Part shown: positions 19,326 through 64,000 of the stretch, piece after piece
Position numbering within the stretch: the first letter of the stretch is position 1
Layout of the letters: each line of letters begins with the position of its first letter
From: Metabacillus flavus
GTDB taxonomy: Bacteria; Bacillota; Bacilli; Bacillales; Bacillaceae
Reading direction: 5' to 3'
DNA: 64,000 nt
Assembly (NCBI RefSeq): GCF_018283675.1
Contig: NZ_JAGVRK010000001.1
Span: forward strand, 372,001-436,000
Program-made: the position numbers and the translations under genes
The notes under the pieces: generated by a model
Seen by the model: the letters and a program-made list of their open reading frames with translations, nothing else
Told to the model about the DNA's origin: nothing
The model's database searches: none

Positions 19326-19664
19326 TGCACTGACCCTCAACATGGCAACGCGGCGGGGACGGAGGTTTAGTGCGGTAGAGGAGCGGGGGTCAGTGCAAAC
19401 TTTATTGACCGGCGCCTGACCCCACATCCTTCACCGCAGCGGGGGACGGAGGCGAATGCGTGTGAAGCCTTATGTATCAATGGTTTACAAAGACGGTGCC
19501 GGAGCTTTAGTTCGGCAGCAAACAGCGGGACTGGCACCGTGCCTGACCCCACATCCTTCACCTCAGCGGGGGACAGAGACCGAAGCCACTCAGCCCTTGC
19601 GTACCAATGGTTCACAGAATCGGTGCCGAAGCTTTCATCCTTAAGCGAACTGCGGGTCAGGCGC
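19326..19664. repeat. Intergenic palindromic repeat cluster (copy R3: one short and two ~127-bp units)
   Basis: A 72-bp unit (19326-19397) has perfect 11-bp ends, TGCACTGACCC/GGGTCAGTGCA. Two longer units follow, 19411-19538 and 19539-19664, carrying GGTGCCG(G/A)AGCTTT boxes in the opposite orientation to R1/R2. The outermost ends, GGCGCCTGACCC and GGGTCAGGCGCC, are again self-complementary. Apparent reading frames here are by-products. Confidence 0.78.
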
Positions 19665-19668
19665 CGCT

Positions 19669-19712
19669 GAGCATCCGCCGAGCATCCGCCGAGCATCCGC
19701 CGAGCATCCGTC
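19669..19712. repeat. Four tandem copies of an 11-bp unit
   Basis: GAGCATCCGCC occurs three times in succession, then GAGCATCCGTC, directly abutting repeat R3. An 11-bp period is not a multiple of three, and no gene covers it. Confidence 0.85.
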
Positions 19713-19767
19713 AAGCCGCCGCACAGCTTTCGCTCATCCGCCAATCCTTGCCTGCCACCACAATGCC

Positions 19768-49976: not shown

Positions 49977-50339
49977 GTGTTTGGTGAGTCTATGTCCGAA
50001 TTACGTCAACAGCTAGCAAAGAAAGAACAAGAACTTACAGAGCTTGAGAATGCTGCAACACAATTGGAAGAGATTTATCAGGATTTCCTTGATAATGAGA
50101 AATTAATATTAGAACCTATCTTAGAAGCAAAAACTTGGTCGGGAAAAGCAGCAAATAAATTCAATGAGGCCAGGGGAAGAGAACTTACTGAAGCTTATAA
50201 AGAAGTTTACTTGCAATTGGTTCAGGCATATCGTGTTGTAATTTATTGCATTAATGAAACAAAAGAAGATATAGCATCATTGAAATCTAAAATTGTACAA
50301 CTTGAGGAAGAAGAGAAATTAAAAGCATTGAATGCTTAA
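49977..50339 (+). CDS. DUF5082 (YwqH-like) small helical LXG partner
   Basis: 120 residues, nearly all helix, WXG100-like in build: a coiled-coil hairpin from ELRQQLAKKEQELTELENAA, a turn with AKTWSGKAANKF (the W-x-G turn, about 58-69) and a second helix ending in LEEEEKLKAL. Such YwqH-type proteins are encoded before Bacillus LXG toxins and act as targeting partners for the ESX/type VII machinery. GTG start after GAGGGAGATAAA. A relative of the gene at 61837-62214. Function by family and context. Confidence 0.8.
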   Translation: MFGESMSELRQQLAKKEQELTELENAATQLEEIYQDFLDNEKLILEPILEAKTWSGKAANKFNEARGRELTEAYKEVYLQLVQAYRVVIYCINETKEDIASLKSKIVQLEEEEKLKALNA

Positions 50340-50354
50340 TAAAGGAAGAGAAAA

Positions 50355-50624
50355 ATGGCCAACGAAATTAAAGTTAAATTGGAAGAAGTGTACAAATCCC
50401 TGGATCAACTCAATAAGACTGCTGAAGGATTAAGTTTTAAGACAATATCTCTTAAAGGCGATAATGTTTTGAACATGGCAGAAAAAATGGATCAGCTTAA
50501 CAAAGATATCAACTTGTTAACAGAAGAATACAAATCTTTATTGAAAGTTAACCTTCAGTTAACGAAGCAATCAGTAAACGAACTGGATAACGCAGATAAG
50601 GATGTAGCTTCTTCTTATAAATAA
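50355..50624 (+). CDS. DUF5344 (YwqI-like) LXG partner
   Basis: 89 residues forming a predicted helical hairpin: IKVKLEEVYKSLDQL, then NMAEKMDQLNKDINLLTEEYKSLL and NELDNADKDVASSYK. It matches the YwqI/DUF5344 group of small secreted or chaperone-like partners in LXG operons. ATG, with GGAAGAGAAAA upstream, 15 bases after the DUF5082 gene and 19 bases before the LXG gene; clearly one operon. Confidence 0.8.
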   Translation: MANEIKVKLEEVYKSLDQLNKTAEGLSFKTISLKGDNVLNMAEKMDQLNKDINLLTEEYKSLLKVNLQLTKQSVNELDNADKDVASSYK

Positions 50625-50643
50625 AGACAGGAGATTTTAACAT

Positions 50644-51972
50644 ATGAAAGTTTTAGATGTAAATGCTTTAAACGACGGGATTGATGCTACTGTCAAAAGC
50701 ATAGACGAACATTTGAAAGAGATAAAGGTTTTTGCAGAATCTTTATCGTCCTTTTTATCTATTGAAGATTCTTTTAAAGGGGAGACTGCAAATGCTATTC
50801 GATCCTTTTATCAGGAAAGCCATATTCCATTTCTAGTTTATTACGGAAGGGTACTAACTGAATATCGCCGAAATTTAAAAAATATGTCTGATGCTATCCA
50901 AGCCGTCGAGCCGGAAAGCAACGGTTATATTATAGAGAATTTCTTGGAAAAGGACGTAACTGAGGGCCTTAATAAAGTAAAGGATGTAACTATCAGTCTT
51001 ACAGATGAAGTAAATGCTATAATTGATCAGATTAAAGATATAACCTCAATTAATCATATTAAAGATGGGCAATTAATAGATGAAGTGAAAGCAATGAAAA
51101 ATCGTACTGAAGAAACCATTAAAAGCCTCCAGAAAATGGACTCTGAACAATCTAAAACACTTGATGAAACAATAGAAAATGTTACAGTCCTCCAAAGCTA
51201 CACTAAAGAAATTAAATCTAAGTTCAGCAGCAACAAAATGTCCGTGAGTAATTTCAAAATGCCCCAGTTGCAAGAAACAAAGAGCTATCAGAAGCTCCAA
51301 GAAAAAATTAGTGAGAAGGATTGGACAGCTTTGGAAGTGATGGATACAGGCATTTTATTTGATGCAACAGCGCCTGTTTCTTCTGCGGGCAGCGCTTTTG
51401 GAGTTATTTCTGAAGGCATTGCCTTAGGAAGTACTGCATGGTCAGTGAAAAAAGGATTTGAAATTACAAGTAAAAACAACACTTACTATATAAGAGGCGG
51501 CACCGCCATTGGACTTAAAACAGATGAACTAAGAAAATTGCCTAAAAATTATGTTGAAAGTCAGGCGAAAATAGGAAATCTGACAAATGTAGCTGAGCAG
51601 GTAAGACCCGCAACAGCTATAAAACAAGCATTAAAAAGTAAGCTGGGCTGGTTTGGCATTGGAGTGTCAACTGTAGAGAATATAAATGAAAATGTTCAAG
51701 CCAATGAATCCAATGCTAAAATTACTGGAGACGCAATAGTTGATGTAGGGGTAGGAGCTGTAACCCTTGCAGCTGGTGCTACTTCAGTTGCGCTAGTGAC
51801 AGCATTGGGGGCACCTGTTTTAGGAGCAGCAGCAATAGGGTTCGGAATTTCAGTCGGCGCGTCTTATCTATTAGACGGGGTTAAGTTTGGAAAAGAAGAA
51901 ACCAGCATATCGGACGGTATAAAAAGTGGAGTAGAAAAAGGTATTAAAACTATTGCAGGATGGTTTAAGTAA
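50644..51972 (+). CDS. LXG polymorphic toxin with glycine-zipper C-terminus (module 1)
   Basis: 442 residues. The N-terminal LXG domain (about 1-205) starts MKVLDVNALNDGIDATVKSI and contains FKGETANAIRSFYQESHIPFL, the LXG hallmark (landmark AIRSFYQESHIP). A linker follows, then a hydrophobic glycine-rich stretch (about 364-412, with GVGAVTLAAGATS and GAAAIGFGISVGASYLL) and an amphipathic tail ending in AGWFK. This resembles membrane-active LXG toxins with glycine zippers, such as TelE/TspA of streptococci, more than the nuclease type. It should be exported through a type VII system, which is not in the window. The downstream membrane protein is the likely immunity factor. Confidence 0.85.
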   Translation: MKVLDVNALNDGIDATVKSIDEHLKEIKVFAESLSSFLSIEDSFKGETANAIRSFYQESHIPFLVYYGRVLTEYRRNLKNMSDAIQAVEPESNGYIIENFLEKDVTEGLNKVKDVTISLTDEVNAIIDQIKDITSINHIKDGQLIDEVKAMKNRTEETIKSLQKMDSEQSKTLDETIENVTVLQSYTKEIKSKFSSNKMSVSNFKMPQLQETKSYQKLQEKISEKDWTALEVMDTGILFDATAPVSSAGSAFGVISEGIALGSTAWSVKKGFEITSKNNTYYIRGGTAIGLKTDELRKLPKNYVESQAKIGNLTNVAEQVRPATAIKQALKSKLGWFGIGVSTVENINENVQANESNAKITGDAIVDVGVGAVTLAAGATSVALVTALGAPVLGAAAIGFGISVGASYLLDGVKFGKEETSISDGIKSGVEKGIKTIAGWFK

Positions 51973-51995
51973 AACTAAATTACAGGTGGTAAATC

Positions 51996-52700
51996 ATGTT
52001 TAAAATCAGCCAAGATAAAAAACACAGGAATCTCCCAGACCATATAATAGAGCATTTAAGTTTTTTTCCTCCTTTTCAGATTAAATTTTTGGTTGGAGGA
52101 ACAACATTTTTTTTGCTTGATTTGTTCATTCTTATTCCGCTCATAGCTCCGAAAAATAACCCTTTGCTAATACTTATAGGGACTCTTTTAGTATTAATCA
52201 GTCTTTGGGCCCTGTGGATAATAGTAAGAAATCCTAAGGATACGGAATTAGAGTCTATTCTCTTTTTTGGATATCTCGGTGCAGTGGGAGCCCTCTCATA
52301 TTTTGGAGTAGGCCTTAAATATAGTTATATGATTGGAATTACTCATCCAATTTATTATATAGCTTTGAGTTTGCTATTTTTAAGTTCCATTTACTATTTA
52401 ATAAGATATTACAATAAGAAATTTTCTTCCCTAAAAGAATTTGATAAGAAAGCTACACCCAAGTGGCATTTTACTATTGCAGGTATATCAGTACCAGCAG
52501 GCTACATAGCTGCAAATTATTTTATGGGAGTATCAAATTTTATAATGATATCTTTTCTTAATTTATTGTTTTTTGGACTATCCTTTTTCTTTATTTTTCT
52601 TTTAGCTAAATATTTCCACAAGTACTTTTTTATGAAAGCTAACTTGCACTTCGTAAAATTCTCGAACAAAAAAATCACTTCAAAAAAGGCGGATGCATAA
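51996..52700 (+). CDS. Six-helix membrane protein, likely immunity protein of LXG module 1
   Basis: 234 residues with six hydrophobic segments (about 32-52, 56-75, 85-105, 114-132, 155-175, 178-205), basic loops and a lysine-rich tail. I do not recognise a family. It begins 23 bases after the LXG toxin gene and precedes a DUF4176 gene, which is the usual place for the immunity gene; a membrane protein is the expected antidote to a pore-forming toxin. Very AT-rich. ATG after ACAGGTGGTAAATC. Confidence 0.65.
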   Translation: MFKISQDKKHRNLPDHIIEHLSFFPPFQIKFLVGGTTFFLLDLFILIPLIAPKNNPLLILIGTLLVLISLWALWIIVRNPKDTELESILFFGYLGAVGALSYFGVGLKYSYMIGITHPIYYIALSLLFLSSIYYLIRYYNKKFSSLKEFDKKATPKWHFTIAGISVPAGYIAANYFMGVSNFIMISFLNLLFFGLSFFFIFLLAKYFHKYFFMKANLHFVKFSNKKITSKKADA

Positions 52701-52701
52701 A

Positions 52702-52977
52702 ATGGAAAACCTTTTGCCAATAGGATCTATTGTTATTTTAGAAGGTGGAAATATTAAACTTATGATTTATGGGAGAAAACAAATATTAGTAACAGATGAT
52801 GATAGAAATGGTCAGTTATTTGATTATCTATCTGCACCATATCCAGAAGGGTACGTATCACAGGAATATACATATGTCTTTAATCATGAAAATATTGCCG
52901 AAGTTGTTTTTAAAGGTCACATTGATTCTGAAGAAGAGGAATTTCAGAAAGTGCTGCAAAAGGCAACTGCAGAATAA
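52702..52977 (+). CDS. DUF4176 protein of the LXG/type VII locus
   Basis: 91 residues from the ATG at 52702 (MENLLPIGSIVIL). An in-frame ATG at 52693 sits directly on the AAAAGGCGG ribosome binding site, so the inner start is better. The pattern LPIGSIVILEGGNIKLMIYGR and DYLSAPYPEGYV is DUF4176, small proteins repeatedly found in type VII toxin loci (landmark KLMIYGR). Exact role unknown. Its ribosome binding site lies in the end of the membrane gene before it. Confidence 0.82.
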   Translation: MENLLPIGSIVILEGGNIKLMIYGRKQILVTDDDRNGQLFDYLSAPYPEGYVSQEYTYVFNHENIAEVVFKGHIDSEEEEFQKVLQKATAE

Positions 52978-53160
52978 GTGTTTGTGACTTAATAAGTTCC
53001 ATTAAGAACGTAGAATTAGAGATTTGGTCAGTAATTTAAATCGCCGAAAAAAGTTTTAAATAAAATAACCCGATACTAAGGTACCCCTTAACACCTCAAC
53101 ATCTTGAACTACCAAATTTTTATGCAATTTATATCTCATCCTACCTTAAAACTGCTGAAA

Positions 53161-53193
53161 TAACCGCCCTGATGATTACAGTAGGGCGGTTTC
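53161..53193. terminator. Hairpin between the LXG operon and marR
   Basis: ACCGCCCT pairs with AGGGCGGT around a 12-base loop. T tracts are short. The 230 bases before it (52978-53160) hold no gene. Confidence 0.5.
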
Positions 53194-53210
53194 CATGGTA
53201 GGTAATTTAT

Positions 53211-53657
53211 TTAAGAGTAACTTTTTCTCACCCTCTCCCCAATCCTCCCAATCGACTCCACATCCTCCTCCGTCAACAAACTCAAAAAATGCTCTCTTAT
53301 AGCCTCCGAAACAACCGGAAGAGCTTCATTCAAAGCGGTTTTTCCAGCTTCCGTAATAATAACTTGAACTCCTCGATCTGAGTCTGATGGTTTCCTTACA
53401 ACAAGTCCGCGCTTTTCCATTCGTGTCAGGTGGTGGGATAGTCTGCTTTTGTCCCAGTTCATGGAGTCAGCGAGTTCCTGCTGGCGGAGCTCGCCGTTTC
53501 CAAATTGATCGAGCCGGTCAAGTATTCCGAAATCCCCCTCAGATAGTCCAGTTTGGTCTGTCAGGTCTTTGACGACGCGGCCAAAGATGCTCTGATAAGA
53601 GCCTTTCCACATATGCCATATGTTCATTTCTTCTTGAGTGATTTGTTTTTTCTTCAT
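53211..53657 (-). CDS. MarR family transcriptional regulator
   Basis: 148 residues with a winged helix-turn-helix: LRQQELADSMNWDKSRLSHHLTRMEKRGLVVRKPSDSDRGVQVIIT (about 56-100; landmarks ELADSMNWDKSRLSHHL and DRGVQV). It is divergent to an aldo/keto reductase gene, and two perfect 16-bp palindromes lie between the two starts, one of them over its own promoter (TTGAGG-N18-TATGAT on the minus strand). It very probably represses itself and the reductase and responds to an electrophile or a phenolic compound. Confidence 0.9.
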   Translation of the reverse strand: MKKKQITQEEMNIWHMWKGSYQSIFGRVVKDLTDQTGLSEGDFGILDRLDQFGNGELRQQELADSMNWDKSRLSHHLTRMEKRGLVVRKPSDSDRGVQVIITEAGKTALNEALPVVSEAIREHFLSLLTEEDVESIGRIGERVRKSYS

Positions 53658-53673
53658 GCAGCTATCATATCAC

Positions 53674-53727
53674 GGTTGACGTATCAACCTCAAGGTGCTA
53701 CGATGTGTTTGGGTTGACGTATCAACC
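53674..53727. promoter_or_regulatory. Two identical MarR operators with overlapping divergent promoters
   Basis: GGTTGACGTATCAACC, a perfect 16-bp palindrome, occurs at 53674-53689 and 53712-53727, 38 bp apart. The first contains TTGACG (53676-53681), the -35 of a promoter with TACGAT at 53699-53704 after 17 bases, reading toward the reductase. The second lies just after that -10. The minus promoter of the regulator gene has the first operator in its spacer. Confidence 0.8.
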
Positions 53728-53752
53728 TAATGGCGAAGGGGTGGATGATGAG

Positions 53753-54724
53753 ATGAACTATGTAAAGCTTGGGAGATCTGGGTTGGATGTTTCGCGGCTG
53801 TGTCTTGGATGTATGAGCTTCGGTGTGCCGGAACGCGGCAATACTCCGTGGTCGCTAAGTGAAGAGGAGAGCAGGCCCATTATTAAAAAAGCACTTGATA
53901 TGGGCATCAATTTTTTCAGCACGGCGAATATGTATTCCGATGGAACGAGTGAAGAAATCGTAGGGCGCGCTTTAAAGGATTTTGCCCGGCGGGATGAGGT
54001 CGTCGTTGCCACGAAGGTATTTGTGCCAATGCGAAAGGGTCCGAATGGAATGGGGCTTTCCCGTAAAGCGATCATGACTGAGATTGATAACAGTCTGCAG
54101 AGGCTTGGGATGGACTACATCGATTTGTACCAGATTCATCGCTGGGATCCGCATACCCCGATTGAAGAAACGATGGAGGCTCTTCACGATGTAGTCAAGG
54201 CAGGAAAAGTCCGTTACATCGGAGCTTCCTCTATGCTTGCCTGGCAGTTCCTGAAAGCTCAGCATACGGCGGAGCTTCATGGCTGGACCCGCTTTATCTC
54301 CATGGAAAACAGGCTCAACCTGCTTTACCGGGAGGAAGAAAGGGAAATGCTGCCGCTTTGCAAGGAGGAGGGAGTGGGCGTCACCCCATACCTGCCGCTG
54401 GCTGCCGGCAGGTTAACACGGGAATGGAGAGAGCAGACCCACCGATCTGAAAATGACCAGGTTGCAAAGGCGCTGTTTTCAAGAACAGAGGAAGCGGACC
54501 GGAAAGTAGCGGAGAGAGTAGCGGAAGTGGCAGCTGGACGTGGCGTTCCGCGTGCACAAATTGCACTTGCCTGGATTCTGCAGAAGGAGGAAGTCACATC
54601 TCCGATCATCGGAGCGACAAAGGTGAACCATCTTGAAGATGCGGTTTCGGCATTGTCTATGAGATTAACAGAGGAAGAGATAGAGAGTTTGGAAGAGCTG
54701 TATGTGCCGCATGGGCTGGTTTGA
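53753..54724 (+). CDS. Aldo/keto reductase
   Basis: 323 residues from the ATG at 53753 (MNYVKLGRSGLDVSRLCLG), with AAGGGGTGG eight bases upstream. The frame is open upstream across the promoter and operators, so that part is not coding. TIM-barrel NADPH reductase with the catalytic set D (ALDMGINFF), Y (NMYSDGTSE), K (VVATKVF) and H (YQIHRWDP), and a C-terminal cofactor region ending in IGATKVNHLEDAV. Close to the YhdN/IolS type. Probably detoxifies aldehydes under control of the divergent MarR gene. Confidence 0.9.
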   Translation: MNYVKLGRSGLDVSRLCLGCMSFGVPERGNTPWSLSEEESRPIIKKALDMGINFFSTANMYSDGTSEEIVGRALKDFARRDEVVVATKVFVPMRKGPNGMGLSRKAIMTEIDNSLQRLGMDYIDLYQIHRWDPHTPIEETMEALHDVVKAGKVRYIGASSMLAWQFLKAQHTAELHGWTRFISMENRLNLLYREEEREMLPLCKEEGVGVTPYLPLAAGRLTREWREQTHRSENDQVAKALFSRTEEADRKVAERVAEVAAGRGVPRAQIALAWILQKEEVTSPIIGATKVNHLEDAVSALSMRLTEEEIESLEELYVPHGLV

Positions 54725-54771
54725 TTATTCGGATGTATAATTTGATTGAAAAAATACGAATGGTTTAAATT

Positions 54772-54796
54772 GAACGCCGGTGAGGCGTTCTTTTTA
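54772..54796 (+). terminator. Terminator of the aldo/keto reductase gene
   Basis: GAACGCC pairs with GGCGTTC around GGTGA, then TTTTT. Confidence 0.85.
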
Positions 54797-54897
54797 TTTG
54801 TTCTGGATGGCAGTTTAGTTTTGATAGGGAAGAACAAGCGATAGTTCAAACCAGAATTGTATTATGCAAAGTTACAGAATATAATGTATATACAGAT

Positions 54898-55190
54898 GTG
54901 GATACGGAAATAGTAGGAGAAGTGAGGTCTGTGTTCGATTGGGATCGAGGAAATATCAAGCATATATTTCAGCATGACATTTCACCTCAGGAAGCGGAAG
55001 AAGCTTTTTACGATCCGGACCGGAGCATACATCATGCACATAGTGGAAATAGAAAAATTATCGGCATGACAGAAGATGGACGGTTACTGGCCATCATTTT
55101 ACAAAGCGTGAGAAGAAGATTAGACCTATCACAGGATGGGATGCAACGGAAACAGAACGAAAATCATACAATAGAAAAAGGAGGCAGTAA
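54898..55190 (+). pseudogene. brnT: BrnT toxin gene with a one-base deletion
   Basis: BrnT is a RelE-like ribonuclease toxin. The N-terminal part reads VFDWDRGNIKHIFQHDISPQEAEEAFYD (landmarks FDWDRGNIKHI and EAEEAF) and NRKIIGMTEDGRLLAII. It then runs into LQSVRRRLDL. In the -1 frame, TKREKKIRPITGWDATETE and RKSYNRKRRQ follow to a TAA at 55188-55190, exactly the canonical BrnT end with the KIRPITGWDAT motif. The break is at four T residues, 55097-55100, where one T seems lost. GTG 54931 with AGGAGAAGTGAGG upstream is an alternative start. The antitoxin follows two bases after the restored stop. Confidence 0.8.
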
Positions 55191-55192
55191 AG

Positions 55193-55543
55193 ATGGATGA
55201 GGCTAGAAGAAACAAGAAAAGAATGGATGAGCTAGGCAGAGTTTTCATTGATGACCTGAATGAAATTCCTCAAAATATGACAGAAGAAGAAACAAAGCAA
55301 TTTTGGGAGAAGCATGCAATGAGCGAGGGCTTGCTGAATGAAACACATATTGAAGATGAGGAGGATTTGCCTTTACCCCGCAAGCAGTCCACTAAGCCCA
55401 TTAACCTTAGAATAGAAAGCGACCTGCTGTCCCGGCTTCAGAAGGTGGCTGAAAAGAAAAATGTACCCTATCAGACTTTATTAAAGCAGTTTGTGGCAGA
55501 GAGAGTCTATGAAGAAGAGAAGAGAGAGAAAATTTTGTACTAA
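55193..55543 (+). CDS. brnA: BrnA-type antitoxin
   Basis: 116 residues. The C-terminal ribbon-helix-helix is clear: KPINLRIESDLLSRLQKVAEKKNVPYQTLLKQFVAERVYEE (about 66-106; landmarks INLRIESDLL and PYQTLLKQFV). The N-terminal 60 residues are acidic (FIDDLNEIPQNMTEEETKQF) and should wrap the toxin. ATG with AAAGGAGGCAGTAAAG upstream, located right after BrnT. With the toxin disrupted it may persist as a solitary antitoxin or repressor. Ends in a terminator. Confidence 0.82.
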   Translation: MDEARRNKKRMDELGRVFIDDLNEIPQNMTEEETKQFWEKHAMSEGLLNETHIEDEEDLPLPRKQSTKPINLRIESDLLSRLQKVAEKKNVPYQTLLKQFVAERVYEEEKREKILY

Positions 55544-55552
55544 AATACACAC

Positions 55553-55578
55553 AAAACCACCCTTCCAGGTGGTTTTTT
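55553..55578. terminator. Terminator between brnA and the SEC-C gene
   Basis: AAAACCACC pairs with GGTGGTTTTTT around CTTCCA. Confidence 0.85.
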
Positions 55579-55584
55579 CACATC

Positions 55585-56761
55585 CTATTTCCCGCAGCAC
55601 TTCTTGTACTTCTTCCCGCTTCCGGAAGGGCATGGAGCATTGCGGGTGATATTGTTTGTTGGGGCAGAGGGTGCTGGCGGTGTGAATACGATCCTCCCCC
55701 TAGTGGTTTTCGCTTCTCTTTTTTCGATTATCGATTTCCATGTTTGCAGTTTCGGGTGGTCCACGCCGCTGATTATGCAGGTTGCGTACAGATCCCTTTC
55801 AAATTCAAGAAGACCATTGTCATATCCTTGTTCCATAAAGTCTACCAGTTTGGGAATGGCCTCGGTTGACAGCTGGCTGCATAACGCTTCTGCCATCAGT
55901 GTTTTCGCTGTAAGATCGGTGGCTTGAATCGAAGAGGGATAAAAGTTTTTCGACAGCAAGCTCAGATTTACTATTTTTCAGTACCGCTATGGATGAGTAA
56001 AATTCATCTGGATCCAGTGCGCAGGGGGCTACACATGTGATTACTTCATCGGTGCCGATTTTGATTAACGCTGCTTCCACTTCTTCAACCAGGATTTCTT
56101 CCCTGCCGCGCAACGTCAGTTTTGCAAGATCTTCAACTAACGAATGGATTTTCAGTTCGCCTGCAGCATAGACAGCCATATAGCCTTTATAGGTAAAATA
56201 ATCTTGTTTCGTTTCTTGCTGGATGATCTCCTCAATTTCCTCTGATGTATAGGCGTTCCATTTAATCAAACGATCTGTAATACGCTTGCAATACGTATAA
56301 AGGTTGTCATTATAAAGCCCTTGAGATTCCATTTCATCAGTGACCCTTGAGTGTTCATTCTGGAGTTCACTGATTGAAAGGTGATTGAGTTTAATGATGC
56401 TTTCCAGCTGAGTAAGATGCTCCTCTTCCATAACGGGCCGGACCTCTTCAAAATGTCCCTCAATTCGTTCGGAATCCAAATGGCTGAAAATCGTACGATA
56501 CCAGTACAGGTTGTGATCCTTTTTCTTAAGAAGATCCACCAGCCGCTGAGCGCCAGCCTGACCGATCTGATAGGAGTATGTATAGGGCAATATGGTATTG
56601 GTCTGATTGTTAGGCGTGTTTTTATCGTTAGCATCCAGTGCAAGGTGGAAGGTCTCATCGTTTCCCAAACGGGCGTCATCGATTTTTTTTAGTGCGAAAT
56701 CCTGGAGAATCGGGTCTTCGCTTAGTATGAAGGGCTGAAGGGTTTTTAGAAAGTTAGGCAT
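55585..56761 (-). pseudogene. HEAT-like SEC-C protein, frameshifted near its C-terminus
   Basis: The frame from 56761 encodes helical, HEAT-like sequence (FILSEDPILQDFALKKIDD, GQAGAQRLVDLLKKKDHNLY, ELKIHSLVEDLAKL) to LFDSSHR and then an unnatural SYSENTDGRS tail that stops at 55820. A second frame overlaps it and reads TDLTAKTLMAEALCSQLSTE to a C-terminal SEC-C zinc motif, APCPSGSGKKYKKCCGK, ending at 55585. The two join naturally at about 55915 as SSHR-TDLTAK, giving about 391 residues. Cause: one extra base or two missing. Function unknown; SEC-C repeats bind zinc and occur in many otherwise unrelated proteins. Confidence 0.7.
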
Positions 56762-56861
56762 TAGCTGATGCTCCTTTAAATACGTTTATCTTTCCTTCCA
56801 CTATTTTAGCATTGGCAGGAATGAGGCAGGTATAATAATAGAAAAACAGGAGGAATGGGAG

Positions 56862-57254
56862 ATGGAGAAAGTGGTTAACTATAAGTTGAAATCTCACATA
56901 TTAGAAGCAGTAGAAAATCAGCTGAAGATGAATGATCCAAAGTGCACGAAACAGACATTAAACCGGTTAGTTGATTCAGGGTTCAAAACAGAACAGTCAA
57001 AAGAGATGATCGCCGCTATACTTGCAGAAGAAATGTGGTATGTCATGAATGATAATGAGCTATTTAATCCAAAGCGGTATGCGAAAAAGCTTTCATTGCT
57101 TCCGGACTATTTAGAGGCAGGGGAATCCAAAAATACAACAAGAACATTGAAAGCTGAACCTGCAATTGGCAGAAATGAACCTTGCAAGTGCGGCAGTGGC
57201 AAGAAATTTAAAAAGTGCTGCGGACTGAGTAATAACAAGCGAATGGAGCAGTAA
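56862..57254 (+). CDS. Small SEC-C motif protein
   Basis: 130 residues. An N-terminal helical domain (KSHILEAVENQLKMND, TKQTLNRLVDSGF, AILAEEMWYVMND) and a C-terminal SEC-C zinc motif, IGRNEPCKCGSGKKFKKCCG (about 103-122). It is divergent to the larger SEC-C gene, whose tail has the same motif. Function unknown. ATG after AGGAGGAATGGGAG. Directly upstream of the first repeat array. Confidence 0.8.
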   Translation: MEKVVNYKLKSHILEAVENQLKMNDPKCTKQTLNRLVDSGFKTEQSKEMIAAILAEEMWYVMNDNELFNPKRYAKKLSLLPDYLEAGESKNTTRTLKAEPAIGRNEPCKCGSGKKFKKCCGLSNNKRMEQ

Positions 57255-57332
57255 ATCGGTACGAAAAGGTTAATTTAGAGGGGAAATTCAATCATTCATG
57301 CGATAAGAAAATAGATCTGCATCAACCACCAG

Positions 57333-57446
57333 CTTATGATGAAAAATCCGCAGCTTATGATGAAATTTGTGTGACTTATGATGAAATTTTCAAATTTATG
57401 ATGAATTTTCAGTGACTTATGATGAAAATTTAAGATTTATGCTGAA
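57333..57446 (+). repeat. Array of six 11-mers every 20-21 bp (array A1)
   Basis: CTTATGATGAA or a one- or two-base variant starts at 57333, 57354, 57375, 57395, 57416 and 57436. The intervening 9-10 bases vary but are mostly AT-rich. The fifth unit, CTTATGATGAAAATTTAAGA, is identical to the fifth unit of array A2, and the sixth is the variant TTTATGCTGAA in both. The gap 57255-57641 contains no gene. Period about two helical turns. Confidence 0.9.
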
Positions 57447-57641
57447 TGACACATATTAAGCCAACAATGGATATTATTAATAGATACCGCTTTGAAAATG
57501 AGATTGGTACAAACATAAGAAACCGCTTGGTAAACCAGGCAGCACGTAATTTGCATACTTTACTTTCACGCTTGCATTTTATGAAATACACTGAATATAA
57601 TTACCACATGACGAATTTCGGATAAATAAGGAGGTTATAAG

Positions 57642-58127
57642 ATGTGGAAAAAATTATTTCGTTCATCAAAAGATGAAGAGGACGATAGAGCAAGCTTATT
57701 TGCAGAACTTCAACAAGACGAAATGTTTCAGGAAATGGTAAGAAAAGCTGAAGAAAGATTAGAATTTTTGCTTGAACTAGATAAACTGTGCGATAAATGT
57801 ATTTATTTGCTTGAGAGTCCTTTTGAAAGATTAGATATGGTTGATTTAATTGTAAATGAAATAGAAGAATTAAAACCCAAAATACAGGTTTTTCAAAAAA
57901 GTGCAGATTCAAAATTTGACCATAAAGAAATTAAAAATACGGTAACTCCCTATCTCAAATTATCGGAGTTAATGATTGGCAATCACAAAGATTCTAAAGG
58001 CATAATAAGTTTAATAAATTCAGGTGAAGATTCTCAATCAAAAAAAATGCAAAAATCACTTGAAAAATCCATCTATAGTATATTAAAAATCAAAAACCAA
58101 ATTAGTAAAATGTTTGATATGCGTTAG
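57642..58127 (+). CDS. Hypothetical helical protein (161 aa) between array A1 and LXG module 2
   Basis: ATG at 57642 with AAGGAGGTTATAAG upstream, so translation is likely. The product starts MWKKLFRSSKDEEDD and is predicted to be helical and charged throughout (MVRKAEERLEFLLELDKLCDK, landmark EERLEFLLELDKLCDKC). It has two close cysteines (CDKC, about 49-52) but no complete metal motif. No family recognised. Very AT-rich. It faces the convergent toxin operon across a terminator. Could be an immunity or regulatory protein, without evidence either way. Confidence 0.6.
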   Translation: MWKKLFRSSKDEEDDRASLFAELQQDEMFQEMVRKAEERLEFLLELDKLCDKCIYLLESPFERLDMVDLIVNEIEELKPKIQVFQKSADSKFDHKEIKNTVTPYLKLSELMIGNHKDSKGIISLINSGEDSQSKKMQKSLEKSIYSILKIKNQISKMFDMR

Positions 58128-58176
58128 TCACATTTCAGTACATATACGATTGTTGTTTAGCTTGAAAATAATGCAG

Positions 58177-58216
58177 AAAAAAACCCGAATAAATGATATT
58201 AATCTTTATTCGGGGG
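58177..58216 (-). terminator. Terminator of LXG module 2 operon
   Basis: On the minus strand CCCGAATAAA pairs with TTTATTCGGG, followed by TTTTTTT. Confidence 0.85.
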
Positions 58217-58226
58217 GCTCTATATT

Positions 58227-58673
58227 TTAAAAAGCTCCAATACTCATTTCTACATACGAAGTACCATCATAGGTTTGTTTGAGTTCCACAAAAAAAGGAG
58301 TTGTCTGAGGTAATTCATTCACTTCCAGATATTGAGCTAATTCCCAATAGGTTTCCTGTGACTTCTCGTTGAATTCTCCAGCTATTCTGGCTGTAATTAA
58401 TCCATAGACACCAAAATAGCTTTTAAACGTAATGTCGTGCTCTTTTCGGTCTTCAATTCTGTCTTCCTCAATAGGTATAAATATTTCCGATGTCATCACC
58501 TCTGAATTCGGGTCGCTGAGTATGGAAAAAAACAGCGGACCCTTCGGGGTAACTCCTTTATCTGCAAGGAGCTTTTGGAAATCCCGAATGGCAAGTCCGA
58601 TTTCATCCGGCACGAAACGATAATATTTGGAGGCTACGTTTCTGTAAGTAATCTCAGTATTTTCCTCGATCAT
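58227..58673 (-). CDS. DUF5085 protein (second copy)
   Basis: 148 residues. The pattern ENTEITYRNVASKYYRFVPDEIGLAIRDFQKLL (landmark NVASKYYRF) and GVTPKGPLFFSILSD is DUF5085, a GyrI-like small domain seen downstream of Bacillus LXG toxins. It overlaps the preceding DUF5085 gene by ATGA (58673-58670), so the two are translationally coupled. Probably an accessory or immunity protein; direct evidence is lacking. Confidence 0.75.
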   Translation of the reverse strand: MIEENTEITYRNVASKYYRFVPDEIGLAIRDFQKLLADKGVTPKGPLFFSILSDPNSEVMTSEIFIPIEEDRIEDRKEHDITFKSYFGVYGLITARIAGEFNEKSQETYWELAQYLEVNELPQTTPFFVELKQTYDGTSYVEMSIGAF

Positions 58674-59128
58674 GAAGCATAGCCTTCTTCCTTGATTGGC
58701 ACGTAAAGATCAATCATGTACTCCCCATATACCTCCAGCAGAACACAATAATAGGTTTCCGTTAATTGGATCTCATTTTCTGTGGCATAATCCTTTACCT
58801 TCTGATAGGCAGCATAAAAATCGGGCTCTTCTTGGGCCTGACGTAAAACCAGTGCATTATCAACTGTGAACGTATCCATATATTGAAAATCGCCATTCTT
58901 CTCAAAGGTGATCGAATCGTTGATTGGCATAAAGTAAGTAAAATTGCCGGTCTCAGCATTCCTGACTGCCTCATTGTATGTAAAAAAGATAGGGCCGTTT
59001 CTATATATGTCATGTGAGAGAAGGAGCGTTTCCATAACGAAATTGCCCTCCTGCCAATTATTCTTTGGCTGGCTGATAACGTAAGTAATCAAATGATCAA
59101 AAATTAATGGTTTTTTTTCAATGGGCAT
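58670..59128 (-). CDS. DUF5085-like protein (first copy)
   Basis: 152 residues from the ATG at 59128 (MPIEKKPLIFDHL), seven bases after AAAGGAGCGG; the frame is open 50 codons further but that part overlaps the upstream membrane gene. It contains NGPIFFTYNEAVRNAETGNFTYFMPIND (landmarks NGPIFFTYN and TYFMPIN) and YYCVLLEVYGEYMIDLYVPI, aligning in outline with the next gene, so the two look like an old tandem duplication. Part of the LXG module 2 operon. Confidence 0.72.
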   Translation of the reverse strand: MPIEKKPLIFDHLITYVISQPKNNWQEGNFVMETLLLSHDIYRNGPIFFTYNEAVRNAETGNFTYFMPINDSITFEKNGDFQYMDTFTVDNALVLRQAQEEPDFYAAYQKVKDYATENEIQLTETYYCVLLEVYGEYMIDLYVPIKEEGYAS

Positions 59129-59132
59129 TTGT

Positions 59133-59900
59133 CTACCGCTCCTTTTCTTCCGTTTCTGAGTAAAGATAGCCCCTTTCATTATAATTGAAGCTTTTAAAAC
59201 GATACTTACAATATAAAATGATGAGTTGTTCTGGAAGAACATAAATAATCGTATACGAAATAGAAATAAATATAGCAACCATTGCTATTGTCTCTATGCT
59301 AGCTAGACCCAAAACTCTAACTACATGTTGAATAATAAAAACCAATGCTGTGCTTCCCACAATTATAGTTGGCAGATGAAGCCTCTTTTCAATTTTTTCC
59401 CTCCGTATATCAGAGGAAGAACCAGTTTTATAATGTCCTCGATTTATTAAAATGCTATATCTAACAAAAATACAAACCAATAACAATATTCCAAAAAACA
59501 TTGCTATATTCGTAAAGGATATTAGCATATTTTCTGTTATTCCTTCATTTTCACCTATTAAAAACAAAGCGATTAAAAAAAATGAAACTCCAAAATTTTG
59601 GGTCGTTATTATACTTACTAAATACTGTATTTTTTCAGCTTTTTTGTAAACAAATGGAAAAGAAAAAAGAATAGAACACCCAATCAATACCATCGTAATA
59701 ATGAAATGAACATTCCTAATTTCATCTGAATTAGGATAATTAGTGTATTTACCGGCCACATTATAGGTTAAAAACCAAACTAAAAATTGTAAAGCTGAGC
59801 CAAGTAAAAGTGCACCTGCAAGGGAATTTGGGCTTTGCCTCCCGCTTTCTAGCGGCTTTCGGAGAACTCTAAAATCTTCAACAGACAAGTATTTCTTCAA
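59133..59900 (-). CDS. Six-helix membrane protein, likely immunity protein of LXG module 2
   Basis: 255 residues. A conserved N-terminus (EDFRVLRKPLESGRQSPNSLAG), six membrane helices and a C-terminal YVLPEQLIILYCKYRFKSF, NYNERGYLYSETE. Two relatives lie further right, 62743-63481 (broken) and from 63496 past the window edge, sharing SGRQSP, YVLPEQL and FNERGYLYSE. Its place directly behind a pore-type LXG toxin and its multiplication fit an immunity family. ATG at 59900. Stop is four bases before the next start. Confidence 0.7.
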   Translation of the reverse strand: MKKYLSVEDFRVLRKPLESGRQSPNSLAGALLLGSALQFLVWFLTYNVAGKYTNYPNSDEIRNVHFIITMVLIGCSILFSFPFVYKKAEKIQYLVSIITTQNFGVSFFLIALFLIGENEGITENMLISFTNIAMFFGILLLVCIFVRYSILINRGHYKTGSSSDIRREKIEKRLHLPTIIVGSTALVFIIQHVVRVLGLASIETIAMVAIFISISYTIIYVLPEQLIILYCKYRFKSFNYNERGYLYSETEEKER

Positions 59901-59947
59901 TGTATTACCTCATTTCATTTTAGGGAAATTTCTTCTTAAATGCTAAA

Positions 59948-61453
59948 TCAGTGGAACCAATCTTTAATGCTATTCATAACGGACTTTCCTTTTTTGTCTT
60001 CTTTGGTAAGCAGGTAATTTAGTCCTAATCCAACCGCAGCCCCAACCGCTGTACCTACTCCAGGAATCGGTATTACTGCTGTAAATAAAGCTGTTGATCC
60101 TGTCTGTACAGCGCCAGTTACCGCAGTTTCCACCAATGTATCCACTGTAGCTCTTCCAACCGCTTTCGTATTATCAAGTCCATCTTTTTTTGCATCCTGG
60201 TAATTATCAGAAAAGCTCAATGCTGCTCCAACCGGTGCTAAAATTTTCGCTTGTTTTATATAATTCTTGTAATCTGCTACATCGGTAACTGCCTCTGCTG
60301 CGCCTTTAACAGTAGCTTTTCCAATCGTCTTTACTTTTTCTAAGTTTTTTGCATCCTTATTCCAGTATTGCAAGTGCTGATTATTTTTAAGAATATCGTT
60401 CCCTGCTTTAGACCAACCGTTACTGCCAGACTTCATTGTACTAAACTTAATAGTAGCTGTCCTTGTTTTTGCAATTTGATAGTGTCTTGGCTTCCATTTT
60501 GAACGGTCTTTCGGAAGGCCTCTCATTAATTCTTTATAAACCTGACTATTTTCTTCAATTTTGATGCCAAGCGATTTTAGTGCTTCTTCGGTTGCGGTAA
60601 TACGTGGAAGATATTTGCCTGAAGCATGGTCAAGGCCTCTTTCAATATTCAGTCCGTTACGTGCTCCATACATTTTTCTGCTTATGTTTACATCAAAAAG
60701 AGCTGTTTTAAATCGATCAGCCATCGTAAAATAATCGTTTACTGTATTTCCTTTTTCCGGGCTTGATACTGCTTTTCCATTATTTTTGTCAATCCCTTTT
60801 CTTATAGGAGCAGCCGCAGTTAATACACTCCATTCCGAAGCAGGAAAATCAAAGTCGGTAAGACCGTATGACATCATCGTTTCAACATCATCCACCCAAA
60901 GCTTCATTTTATTAATCTCATCGGAAACCGATTTAAGGGCTGCGAGCTGTGAGGAATCAAACTCGTTTAGCTGCTGAATGGTTTGATCACGCAGTTTTTG
61001 AGCCTGGCTGATATCTGTCTGGACGTCACTGTCGTCGAGATTGGGTAATGCAACAATGTCTGATACCTGAGTCAAGCTGGTGTTGGTCTCATCGGTCAGT
61101 TCGCCGGTAATTTTTCCAAAAGAAGTTAACCCCCGCTCTACTTCGCCTTCAAGAAATTCCTGCCGGATGAAGCCTGATTCGTTTGATTCAAGAGAAGTAA
61201 GAGCGCTGTCCATATTTTTTAAAATAGTAGTGAAGCTTATTTTAAATGATTTGAAATATTCCAGGAACGGGATGTGGCAGCTTTCGTAGAAGGAGCGGAT
61301 AGCCTCACCGCCGGCTCCTTTCAGCGCATCGTCCATTGCAGCCAGGGCAGAAATTGATTTTTCAATTGCCTGAACCTCTGTTTCCAGCCTGGACAGCATG
61401 CTTATATTACGCTGTATGCCCTCATGAAAAGGCTTTACGTCTAAAACCTTCAT
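59948..61453 (-). CDS. LXG polymorphic toxin with glycine-zipper C-terminus (module 2)
   Basis: 501 residues from the ATG at 61453 (MKVLDVKPFHEGI), behind AGAGGTTGAATGT; an upstream in-frame start is less likely. LXG domain to about 215 with GGEAIRSFYESCHIPFLEYF (about 58-77). A central region (YGARNGLNIERGL, LPRITATEEALKSLGI) follows, then a hydrophobic glycine-rich segment (about 436-483, IPIPGVGTAVGAAVGLGLNYLL) and the tail MNSIKDWFH. The C-terminus resembles module 1 (GAAAIGFGISVGASYLL ... AGWFK), although the middle parts differ. Export would need a type VII system elsewhere in the genome. Confidence 0.85.
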   Translation of the reverse strand: MKVLDVKPFHEGIQRNISMLSRLETEVQAIEKSISALAAMDDALKGAGGEAIRSFYESCHIPFLEYFKSFKISFTTILKNMDSALTSLESNESGFIRQEFLEGEVERGLTSFGKITGELTDETNTSLTQVSDIVALPNLDDSDVQTDISQAQKLRDQTIQQLNEFDSSQLAALKSVSDEINKMKLWVDDVETMMSYGLTDFDFPASEWSVLTAAAPIRKGIDKNNGKAVSSPEKGNTVNDYFTMADRFKTALFDVNISRKMYGARNGLNIERGLDHASGKYLPRITATEEALKSLGIKIEENSQVYKELMRGLPKDRSKWKPRHYQIAKTRTATIKFSTMKSGSNGWSKAGNDILKNNQHLQYWNKDAKNLEKVKTIGKATVKGAAEAVTDVADYKNYIKQAKILAPVGAALSFSDNYQDAKKDGLDNTKAVGRATVDTLVETAVTGAVQTGSTALFTAVIPIPGVGTAVGAAVGLGLNYLLTKEDKKGKSVMNSIKDWFH

Positions 61454-61524
61454 ACATTCAACCTCTTTCTGCAACAATTGCTTAAGATAAACGTAATTTC
61501 TTTTCCATTCAGCGCTTTTAGTGC

Positions 61525-61818
61525 CTATTCCATTTCTAAAGGTCCGGAACGCCTTATGGTAGTGGAAGCCGTATCATCGGCATTTTTCATATAAGCAATG
61601 CATTGTCTTGTGGTTTCCACATTCTGTATAAGGATAGAATGATAGGTTACTAAGAGCTTCTCCAGCCGGCTGGAAAGATCGGTTAGCTCTGTTACGACAT
61701 CCAGTGTGTTTCCGGATATTGGATCTTCTGCGCTTGGCTTGAACGCTTTGGCGGCAATGGATATAGATTGCAGACCCTGTTCGGCTTCACCGTATACAAT
61801 TTTTATTTCTGAGGACAT
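61525..61818 (-). CDS. DUF5344 (YwqI-like) LXG partner of module 2
   Basis: 97 residues, helical: IKIVYGEAEQGLQSISIAAKAF, VVTELTDLSSRLEKLLVTYHSIL and MKNADDTASTTIR. Same position and layout as the gene at 50355-50624. ATG at 61818 after AAAAGGAGAATTGAG. Between the DUF5082 and LXG genes of the operon. Confidence 0.78.
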   Translation of the reverse strand: MSSEIKIVYGEAEQGLQSISIAAKAFKPSAEDPISGNTLDVVTELTDLSSRLEKLLVTYHSILIQNVETTRQCIAYMKNADDTASTTIRRSGPLEME

Positions 61819-61836
61819 CTCAATTCTCCTTTTCTA

Positions 61837-62214
61837 TTACTTCTTTGCAGCGGCCTGCTCCGCTTCTCTTGCCCTTTCAGCTGCTGCCTGCGCTTCTAGG
61901 GACGCGATGGCTGCTTGAATAGATTTAATTTCTGCGTTAAGGGATGTAATCTTCTCTGCAATTGCTTTAAAAATTTTTGAGAACTGAGTCCCGGTTATTT
62001 CCTGAAAGGAAGTTTTTATGCCGGATTCCCGCATCTCATCAAACGTATCAGCATGTTTTCCGTTCCAGGTTTCATCAGTCAGATCCGGCTCCATGCATTT
62101 TTGCTCGATCGCACTGAATTCCGCCAACTTGCTGTTTAATGTACTGCTAAATGCAGTCAGCCTTGATAGGTGCTCTTTTTTCTCTCTAAGCAGGTCATAA
62201 TAATATCCCAGCAA
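61837..62214 (-). CDS. DUF5082 (YwqH-like) LXG partner of module 2
   Basis: 125 residues, coiled-coil hairpin with the turn DETWNGKHADTFDEMRESG (W-x-G, about 48-66) and an alanine-rich C-terminus (SLEAQAAAERAREAEQAAAK). Start TTG at 62214, seven bases after AGGAGGT. First gene of the module 2 operon; relative of 49977-50339. The AT-rich 250 bases upstream should hold the promoter, which I could not define. Confidence 0.8.
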   Translation of the reverse strand: MLGYYYDLLREKKEHLSRLTAFSSTLNSKLAEFSAIEQKCMEPDLTDETWNGKHADTFDEMRESGIKTSFQEITGTQFSKIFKAIAEKITSLNAEIKSIQAAIASLEAQAAAERAREAEQAAAKK

Positions 62215-62466
62215 ACTAGATACCTCCTAATAAATTAACCCGAATTTCCATTATCTTTCAATATTTTCACAAATAATACACTATATGAAAATAGATATAA
62301 AGTTACAAATATCCAATTATGTATAAGTATATAGTTCTATTTTCCAAATTTAACAAAATTAAAACCTAAGAGATACAAATCGCAGGCTGTGGCTAGAAAA
62401 TAATTCTGACTAAGAACTTATAAGGTTACGTAAAAATAATAGTGAACGATTCAGGAGATTCGCAAG

Positions 62467-62581
62467 CTTATGATGAATTTTCATAGACTTATGATGAAAA
62501 TTCCGCAACTTATGATGAATTTTGACTGACTAATGATGAAATTTTAGTAACTTATGATGAAAATTTAAGATTTATGCTGAA
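62467..62581 (+). repeat. Array of six 11-mers every 20-21 bp (array A2)
   Basis: CTTATGATGAA or a close variant starts at 62467, 62488, 62509, 62530, 62551 and 62571, spaced 21, 21, 21, 21 and 20. Number, orientation, period, fifth unit and final variant TTTATGCTGAA are the same as in array A1 at 57333-57446. It lies in the gene-free interval 62215-62742, upstream of the LXG module 2 operon. The rest of that interval shows no gene. Confidence 0.9.
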
Positions 62582-62742
62582 AGATGCAAGTTTGCTGAGG
62601 AACCTTTAAGATAGCAAGCGGATCTTTACCGGGACAGTGTTCACATATAGTAAAAGATACTCGCCTCCCACTAATACGACCGGACCCGCAAAAGAAACGA
62701 TATAACGAAGCTACTCGATAATATTCATGGCTTTTTACAGTC

Positions 62743-63481
62743 TTAATCCTTTTCCGAGAAAAGATAGCCTCTTTTATTAAAGTTGAAGCTTTTGAATTTA
62801 AACTTGCAGTACAATAACAATAGCTGCTCTGGAAGAACAAACATCATGGTAAAAAATATAAGAATGCATATGGCACTTGCAATCATGAGTGTTGAAAATC
62901 CTGTTTGTATGTTAGTAAATATAAATATAATAAAATATACAATTCCGATGCCGGCAAGAATGGCCCCGGGAATGTAATCTGCTTTTTCATATTTTCTTCT
63001 TAAAGTGTCTTTTTTTGTACCCTGTTTATAATGTCCTTTATGTAAAAGAATGGCTAATCTCAAAATGGTAACCAGAAAAACAAGTAATCCAATGAAAAGG
63101 ATGGTTGTTGAAAAACCAATTAAGGTCTTTTGGTCAAGGGCCAATCCTGATTCAGCCGTACCTAAATTTATCAATGCCATCAATAGAGGAAAAAAACCAA
63201 ATATGCTCTGGGATACGATAATCACTTCTATAGATAAAAGGAATTGAATAAACAGCTGATAAACCGCTTAGTGCGAAGCCTGACCAAAACAAGTATGAGA
63301 AGATCTGGTCCTTGTGTGGAAAAATGGAATACTGGCCTATAAATTGTGTCAGAAAGAACCAGAACCATTGCAAAACAATGGATAGTAATAGATTGCCGCC
63401 TAAAGAATCAGGACTTTGTCTTCCGGATATGAAAGGACCTCTAAAAACCTCGAAATCTTCCGCTAATAATTTTTTGGACAT
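62743..63481 (-). pseudogene. Broken paralogue of the LXG module 2 immunity-like membrane protein
   Basis: From ATG 63481 (MSKKLLAEDFEVFRGPF, ribosome binding site GGAGAAAGGT) the frame matches the start of the 59133-59900 protein (SGRQSPDSLGGNLLLS) up to VYSIPFIYR and stops at 63152. A second frame carries the C-terminal half, IQFLLSIEVIIVSQSIFG to YVLPEQL-like FVLPEQLLLLYCKFKFKSF and RGYLFSEKD, ending at 62743. The halves overlap in the region corresponding to PFVYKKAEKIQYLVS of the intact copy, so a short out-of-frame deletion is likely around 63215-63260. Confidence 0.7.
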
Positions 63482-63495
63482 ACCTTTCTCCAATC

Positions 63496-64000
63496 CTATC
63501 GTTTAATATCAGTCTCAGAATATAAATAGCCTCTTTCGTTAAAGGTAAAGCTCTTAAAACGATATTTACAATATAAAATAATAAGCTGCTCTGGAAGAAC
63601 ATAAATGATGGCATATGAAATAGAACTAAATAAAACAATAATAGATATTGTCTCTATGTCAGCAAAGCCAAATACTTTAACCGCTTGCTGAATGATATAA
63701 ATTAAAGCTATGCTTCCTGTGACTATAATTGGCAAGTGGAAGCCTTTTTCTCCCCTTCTCTTATCAGAGGCAGAATCCCTTTTATAATGCCCCCGATATA
63801 ATAAAAGAAAATATCTTATAAAAGTACTAACAAGTATCAATGCTCCGAAAAACATGGAAATGATCGTAAAAGATATAAGCGTATTTTCATTTATTCCTTC
63901 TTTTTCACCAAGAAGAAACAAGGCCATTAGAAAAAAAGAAGCTCCAAGATTTTGGGTGGTCAGTATACTCATCAAATATTGAATTCTTTCCCCTTTCTTA
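63496..64000 (-). CDS. Third paralogue of the immunity-like membrane protein (partial, runs off the right edge)
   Basis: The frame is open to the window edge (KKGERIQYLMSILTTQNLGAS) and so lacks its N-terminus here. It is the closest to the 59133-59900 protein: both have TTQN(L/F)G-SFFL-ALFL(L/I)GE, RGHYK, YVLPEQLIILYCKYRFKSF and FNERGYLYSET (only the landmarks are listed). Stop at 63496-63498, 15 bases before the start of the next copy. Probably part of an immunity gene cluster belonging to a further toxin outside the window. Confidence 0.72.
   Translation of the reverse strand, partial: KKGERIQYLMSILTTQNLGASFFLMALFLLGEKEGINENTLISFTIISMFFGALILVSTFIRYFLLLYRGHYKRDSASDKRRGEKGFHLPIIVTGSIALIYIIQQAVKVFGFADIETISIIVLFSSISYAIIYVLPEQLIILYCKYRFKSFTFNERGYLYSETDIKR

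What the first reader, a model, noticed from the sequence alone, without database searches (positions are those of the whole stretch)
57333..62581. Two matching arrays of six helically phased 11-mers
Arrays at 57333-57446 and 62467-62581 each hold six copies of CTTATGATGAA (or a one- or two-base variant), all in one orientation, every 20-21 bp, about two turns of B-DNA. Both end with the same order: an identical 20-bp fifth unit (CTTATGATGAAAATTTAAGA) and a degenerate sixth unit beginning TTTATGCTGAA. The sequence between cores varies more than the cores, which suggests selection on the 11-mer and its phase. This would suit a protein that polymerises along one DNA face, or an origin, partition or recombination site. 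I know no described element of this form.
Basis: seen in the sequence. Interest (0 to 1): 0.75.

Follow-up and report, generated by a model that had tools for sequence, protein, structure and literature searches.

The report
Helically phased intergenic decamer arrays
Between genes of this Bacillus-like bacterium lie short DNA arrays in which a fixed ten-letter word recurs on one face of the double helix; the words change much less between related species than the letters between them, so the arrays are probably landing strips for a still unknown DNA-binding protein.

Summary
They are not a special pair: the genome holds 12 such arrays, and 4 of 5 congeners searched have them. The genus has a second type (ATTGCTGAYTT), at some loci beside the first. 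Pairs of a third core (TATCDGCRAA) occur in 29 of 397 genomes of the order. Spacing is 20 or 21 bp in 446 of 461 intervals. In nine orthologous pairs the core differs at 6 of 520 sites, the spacer at 100 of 541. The last unit carries GCN instead of GAT in 17 of 24 arrays, internal units in 0 of 114. Arrays lie mostly at gene ends and near terminators, seldom between divergent genes. Most likely they are polar binding rows for a cooperative protein between transcription units; protein and role are unidentified. Origin, LXG-specific and promoter-operator readings fit poorly. The closest described kind found is the staphylococcal STAR element, with another motif and much longer spacers. A neutral repeat is not excluded.

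The parts
57333..57446 (+). array 1: six units, core CTTATGATGAA, spacing 21,21,20,21,20
57436..57446 (+). 3' terminal (cap) unit TTTATGCTGAA of array 1
   Evidence: GCN variant in 17 of 24 terminal and 0 of 114 internal units
62467..62581 (+). array 2: six units, spacing 21,21,21,21,20
62571..62581 (+). 3' terminal (cap) unit TTTATGCTGAA of array 2
57223..64000 (.). context, not part of the arrays: LXG-toxin island holding both arrays (continues to about 64568); about 1 kb stands there in congener G001, and no match was found in the three G002 stretches compared
   Evidence: LXG domain at 59948-61453

Best explanation
Each array is a cis-acting, polar nucleoprotein site, usually 90-130 bp in types B (the window's) and C. 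A sequence-specific protein binds one 10-11 bp core per two helical turns, head to tail along one face (commonly 4-6 units in types B and C; type A varies from 2 to 28), and the row ends in a variant 3' unit. Arrays sit between transcription units, mostly at gene ends and often near terminators. I infer that the bound row acts as a chromosomal boundary or architectural element (shielding neighbouring units from read-through or supercoiling) rather than as a promoter operator. Shown here: phase, core constraint, polarity, location, wide but patchy distribution, several core types. Inferred: the protein, its cooperativity, and the boundary role.
For: Spacing 20/21 bp in 446 of 461 intervals where 18-23 was allowed; mean period per array 20.3-20.8 bp by type. 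Core changes 6/520 against spacer 100/541 in nine orthologous pairs. Terminal GCN 17 of 24 against 0 of 114, also at loci not shared by the two main species. A different 3' cap (TATCGATTATTCG) follows third-type arrays in phase at 7 loci of one genome of another family, and the same or a similar cap stands at five further loci of four genomes. The core differs species-wide: GCT in 28 of 32 internal units of G003, GAT in 58 of 58 of G000, including at shared loci (dct-type locus L067/L088). The yajQ-side locus holds type B in G000 and type A in G001 and G005. Terminator-like hairpins point toward the arrays at 23 (3' side) and 26 (5' side) of 85, away at 8 and 14; mononucleotide shuffles give 1-3. 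Flanks convergent 24, divergent 5, tandem 53, unassigned 1 of 83. Wedge-model curvature exceeds dinucleotide shuffles (mean z -3.0 A, -1.1 B, -3.4 C), as any phased row would.
Against: No binding protein found; the neighbour comparison gave orthologous neighbours plus a few loose clusters that I did not follow. Patchy distribution and empty sites in congeners mean they are not essential. Loci were collected with core patterns, which inflates apparent core conservation. Orthologous pairs overlap in membership. 7 of 24 arrays lack the terminal variant. No expression or binding data. The boundary role rests on location alone.
Confidence: 0.45

Rival explanations
1. Self-propagating STAR-like tandem repeat without host function: units multiply by slippage and spread; cores look conserved through homogenisation and through our search.
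For: Units are gained and lost: the G001 relative of the 3296k array is cut to about 3 units; arrays are present or absent between species; one array has 28 units and TRF finds two-unit periods of 41-42 in the window's arrays. STAR elements behave alike and had no known function in that paper (PMC3532100, passages).
Against: Spacers stay locus-specific while cores hardly drift; conversion between loci should homogenise both. Two-turn spacing in 446 of 461 intervals. Recurrent end units.
Confidence: 0.33
2. Operator of a direct-repeat-binding transcription factor (LytTR-like geometry, 9-bp repeats about 21 bp apart) controlling adjacent promoters.
For: LytTR-type repeats are mostly separated by 12 bp (11 or 13 in a minority), about two turns start to start (PMC6193735, passages). 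LytTR domains occur in all 6 genomes of the genus searched.
Against: Divergent flanks in only 5 of 83 and terminators nearby; the described sites are pairs just upstream of -35. LytTR number does not track the arrays: G004, with no type A or B pairs, has 3 matches, G000 has 2.
Confidence: 0.12
3. One end of a mobile element, or a recombinase/transposase binding-site row (Tn7/Mu-like ends have tandem sites of about 20 bp; recalled).
For: Row of same-orientation sites plus a distinct terminal unit; the third type's cap is often followed by CGACA.
Against: No clean insertion junction at the empty sites printed; no transposase recurring among neighbours was noticed. No blastn match for type B and C arrays in 72,556 plasmid or 50,697 phage records (type A not blasted). 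Pairs of types A and C: 0 in viral contigs; type B: 29 contigs, one pair each. Inverted partner ends were not searched for systematically.
Confidence: 0.07
4. Element tied to the LXG toxin island in which both window arrays lie (regulation or cassette exchange).
For: Arrays 1 and 2 lie in an LXG island that G001 lacks.
Against: The other 10 of the 12 arrays lie outside that island, beside genes that I recognise as murA, yajQ, transporters and others (these names are recalled, not tested).
Confidence: 0.03

Closest known systems
STAR elements of Staphylococcus (PMC3532100, passages)
   Same: Dispersed intergenic direct repeats; conserved motif with locus-specific spacers; expansion and contraction; a distinct final ('anchor') spacer; numbers vary among species; function unknown.
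   Different: STAR: 14-bp GC-rich motif with at least 40 bp between motifs. Here: 10-11 bp cores every 20-21 bp, at least three core types, a variant terminal core, many genera of the order.
BldC binding sites (PMC5859096, passages)
   Same: Variable number of head-to-tail direct repeats bound by an asymmetric cooperative oligomer that distorts DNA.
   Different: 9-bp repeats about one turn apart, AATTXXXX(C), in promoters.
LytTR operators (PMC6193735, passages)
   Same: Direct repeats of 9-11 bp about two turns apart.
   Different: Pairs, immediately upstream of promoters.
BIME/REP arrays of enterobacteria (recalled)
   Same: Intergenic, downstream of genes, multi-copy.
   Different: Palindromic units; types A and B here show no RNA-folding excess.
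Plasmid iterons (recalled)
   Same: About 5-7 direct repeats of about 20 bp in one orientation.
   Different: Dispersed chromosomal copies; type B and C arrays have no blastn match in plasmids.

Membership tests
STAR elements | motif T(G/A/T)TGTTG(G/T)GGCCC(C/A) | tested here: not met
   cores are TWATGMTGAA, ATTGCTGAYTT, TATCDGCRAA; motif from PMC3532100 passages
STAR elements | at least 40 bp between motifs | tested here: not met
   period 20-21 bp, so about 10 bp between cores
STAR elements | interspersed intergenic direct repeats with conserved motif and locus-specific spacer | tested here: met
LytTR operators | repeat pair just upstream of a -35 element | tested here: not met
   mostly gene-end and terminator-side location, usually 4 or more units; individual promoters were not mapped
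LytTR operators | bound by a LytTR protein | not testable with these tools
   needs EMSA or DAP-seq; LytTR domains present in all 6 genomes searched
BldC-type sites | AATTXXXX(C) direct repeats about one turn apart | tested here: not met
   two-turn period; site definition from PMC5859096 passages
REP/BIME | palindromic units forming stem-loops (recalled) | tested here: not met
   fold z means between -0.46 and 0.64 for A and B; about -1 for C, a weak excess (up to 14 arrays per type)
Iteron origin | adjacent rep gene or replicon origin (recalled) | tested here: not met
   12 dispersed arrays; no rep gene noticed among neighbours; dnaA at coordinate 0
Rfam RNA families | match to a curated RNA family | tested here: not met
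   0 matches at gathering score in window 50000-64000

The most novel reading that the evidence does not exclude
A family of DNA-recognition systems across the order in which a head-to-tail oligomerising protein and its polar, capped arrays of phased decamers co-diversify: the core differs by type and by species, shifts across a species' arrays, and one type can stand in for another at the same intergenic spot, giving bacterial insulator- or boundary-like elements.
Probability: 0.25. Interest if true: 0.85.

Novelty: new variant of a known kind. Interest (0 to 1): 0.62.

Why it matters
If protein-bound, these arrays would be an overlooked class of chromosomal sites in this order, ready for a direct test (array DNA as bait). 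The species-wide core difference and the type swap at one locus offer a natural experiment in co-evolution of a DNA-binding protein with its sites. If neutral, they are a clean case of repeats whose period follows DNA geometry.

Tried and rejected
Origin-proximal clustering: 15 of 23 distinct loci (distances worked out by hand) lie in the dnaA half; KS p = 0.11; for the 10 type B regions of G000 p = 0.054: not claimed. Strand polarity relative to the nearest gene end: suggested, not upheld as a rule (terminators toward the array 23 on the 3' side, 26 on the 5' side). RNA element: no folding excess in A and B, weak in C, no Rfam family in window 50000-64000. Order-wide type B search: 12 of 397 genomes, control 2 hits; besides G000 only G106 (three pairs) and G282 (one 20-bp pair) look like arrays to me; of the other nine, six are single pairs at 18 bp and three single pairs at 20-21 bp. 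Third-type cap search: 1 of 397 genomes, 7 loci; the exact cap is narrow. LytTR as the factor: number does not track arrays. Recurrent neighbour protein: none clear; loose clusters joining non-orthologous loci (for example L071/L082 with L296/L297, L065 with L291/L292, a seven-member 24-96% cluster) were not followed (45 largest clusters printed). Paper searches for motifs and for intergenic repeats in this group showed no description of these arrays in their listings; of 176 papers with any motif 20 were listed, of 181 eight; most subscription papers are not held.

Full report
Observation. The window holds two arrays of six YTWATGMTGAA cores, 57333-57446 and 62467-62581, all on the + strand, at 20-21 bp. 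The genome holds 50 adjacent pairs in 12 arrays; the reversed-pattern control gives 0. The own genome and 4 of 5 congeners have such pairs, 0 of the 34 other genomes do (5 of 40 in all; the reversed control gives one hit, in G005). That the order is Bacillales follows from these names and is recalled.

A family of arrays. G003 showed a second type (A), ATTGCTGACTT, directly beside the first (B); pairs of it occur in the same 5 genomes of 60 searched, controls 0. At the murA locus A and B stand side by side in G000, G001, G002, G003 and G005. A third type (C), TATCRGCGAA, first met downstream of murA and its neighbour in another genus, has pairs in 10 of 80 genomes of the family, G004 among them. 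The wider TATCDGCRAA has pairs in 29 of 397 genomes of the order, 18 of 135 genera, against 3 control hits; at the first locus fetched per genome 24 of these 29 show three or more units and 5 only two. B-like arrays also occur in another family (G106).

Form. Among 96 arrays of two or more units in fetched loci (30 B, 22 A, 44 C; duplicates by sequence removed, the 118 stretches not counted) 446 of 461 intervals are 20 or 21 bp, with 18-23 allowed. Ties were resolved toward 20.5, and the loci were collected with patterns that require one pair at 17-23 bp, so one interval per array is pre-selected. Mean periods are 20.78 (A), 20.47 (B) and 20.33 (C) bp.

Constraint. In nine orthologous pairs of B arrays the core differs at 6 of 520 aligned sites and the spacer at 100 of 541; change is highest in the middle of the spacer. 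The pairs share members (L068/L073/L089; L066 twice) and were found by core, so the Fisher value in that call is not a true probability. The two window arrays differ at 1 of 60 core and 25 of 63 spacer sites.

Polarity. In B arrays of four or more units from G000, G001, G002 and G005 the last unit has GCN in place of GAT in 17 of 24, internal units in 0 of 114; 7 arrays lack it. In the five such arrays of G003 28 of 32 internal units are GCT, also at a locus shared with G000 (L088/L067). C arrays of G156 end in TATCGATTATTCG in phase at 7 loci; the same or a similar cap stands at five further loci (one of G065, two of G003, one of G001, one more of G156), and CGACA follows in several. No other genome of the 397 drawn has the exact cap.

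Location. Of 83 arrays with three or more units (crude longest-ORF calls, orthologues included, A and B at one locus counted apart), flanking genes are convergent in 24, tandem in 53, divergent in 5, unassigned in 1. A circular genome has equally many convergent and divergent gaps, so 24 to 5 is a skew (one-sided binomial about 3e-4 by hand; relatedness inflates it). Terminator-like hairpins point toward the array at 23 (3' side) and 26 (5' side) of 85, away at 8 and 14; shuffled flanks give 1-3.

Turnover. The locus beside yajQ (name recalled) carries B in G000 and A in G001 and G005 within flanks 91-95% identical. A stretch of about 540 bp with the 440k array is missing from G001, and that array also from G002; the 325k array is missing from G002; the 3296k array is cut to about three units in G001. 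The window's LXG island with arrays 1 and 2 is absent from G001, where about 1 kb stands instead.

Mechanism. Fixed core, drifting spacer, two-turn phase, one orientation and a special last unit are what a row of sites for a protein binding head to tail on one face would show. BldC shows that such oligomers exist (PMC5859096, passages) and LytTR regulators use two-turn direct repeats (PMC6193735, passages), but neither site definition is met. Location at gene ends and near terminators argues for a boundary or architectural role rather than promoter control; this last step is inference. No candidate protein was found.

Known kind. STAR elements of staphylococci (PMC3532100, passages) share the dispersed intergenic habit, conserved motif, locus-specific spacers, unit turnover and a distinct last spacer, and also lacked a known function there. 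Motif and period differ, so these arrays are not STAR elements, but they may work or propagate in a similar way.

Noticed in passing
window 58227-62214: LXG polymorphic-toxin operon on the - strand: LXG protein, DUF5344, YwqH-like and two DUF5085 genes; absent from the syntenic place in G001.
   Followed up: partly
window 59133-59900, 62743-63225, 63496-63927: Three related proteins (38-67% identity) without a Pfam match; the copies right of array 2 are shorter. Possibly immunity paralogues (a guess).
   Followed up: no
window 19664-19722 and 19414-19656: A different tandem repeat (11-bp CCGCCGAGCAT, 4.3 copies) next to a 127-bp repeat of 1.9 copies.
   Followed up: no
L083 about 6440-6660 (G003): 21-bp GGCGGAGGTGATGGAATGATG-like repeats near the A and B arrays (by eye).
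   Followed up: no
G004 contig 30, 73597-74138: Third-type pairs at exact 256-bp intervals, i.e. inside a larger tandem repeat.
   Followed up: no
L373-L379, L285, L282: In five of these nine third-type arrays the first spacer reads like ATCGGACC, hinting at a conserved 5' end too (by eye).
   Followed up: no
G000 C1, A and B pairs: All A and B pairs found in the own genome lie within about 1.2 Mb of dnaA; not significant over 23 loci of three species.
   Followed up: partly
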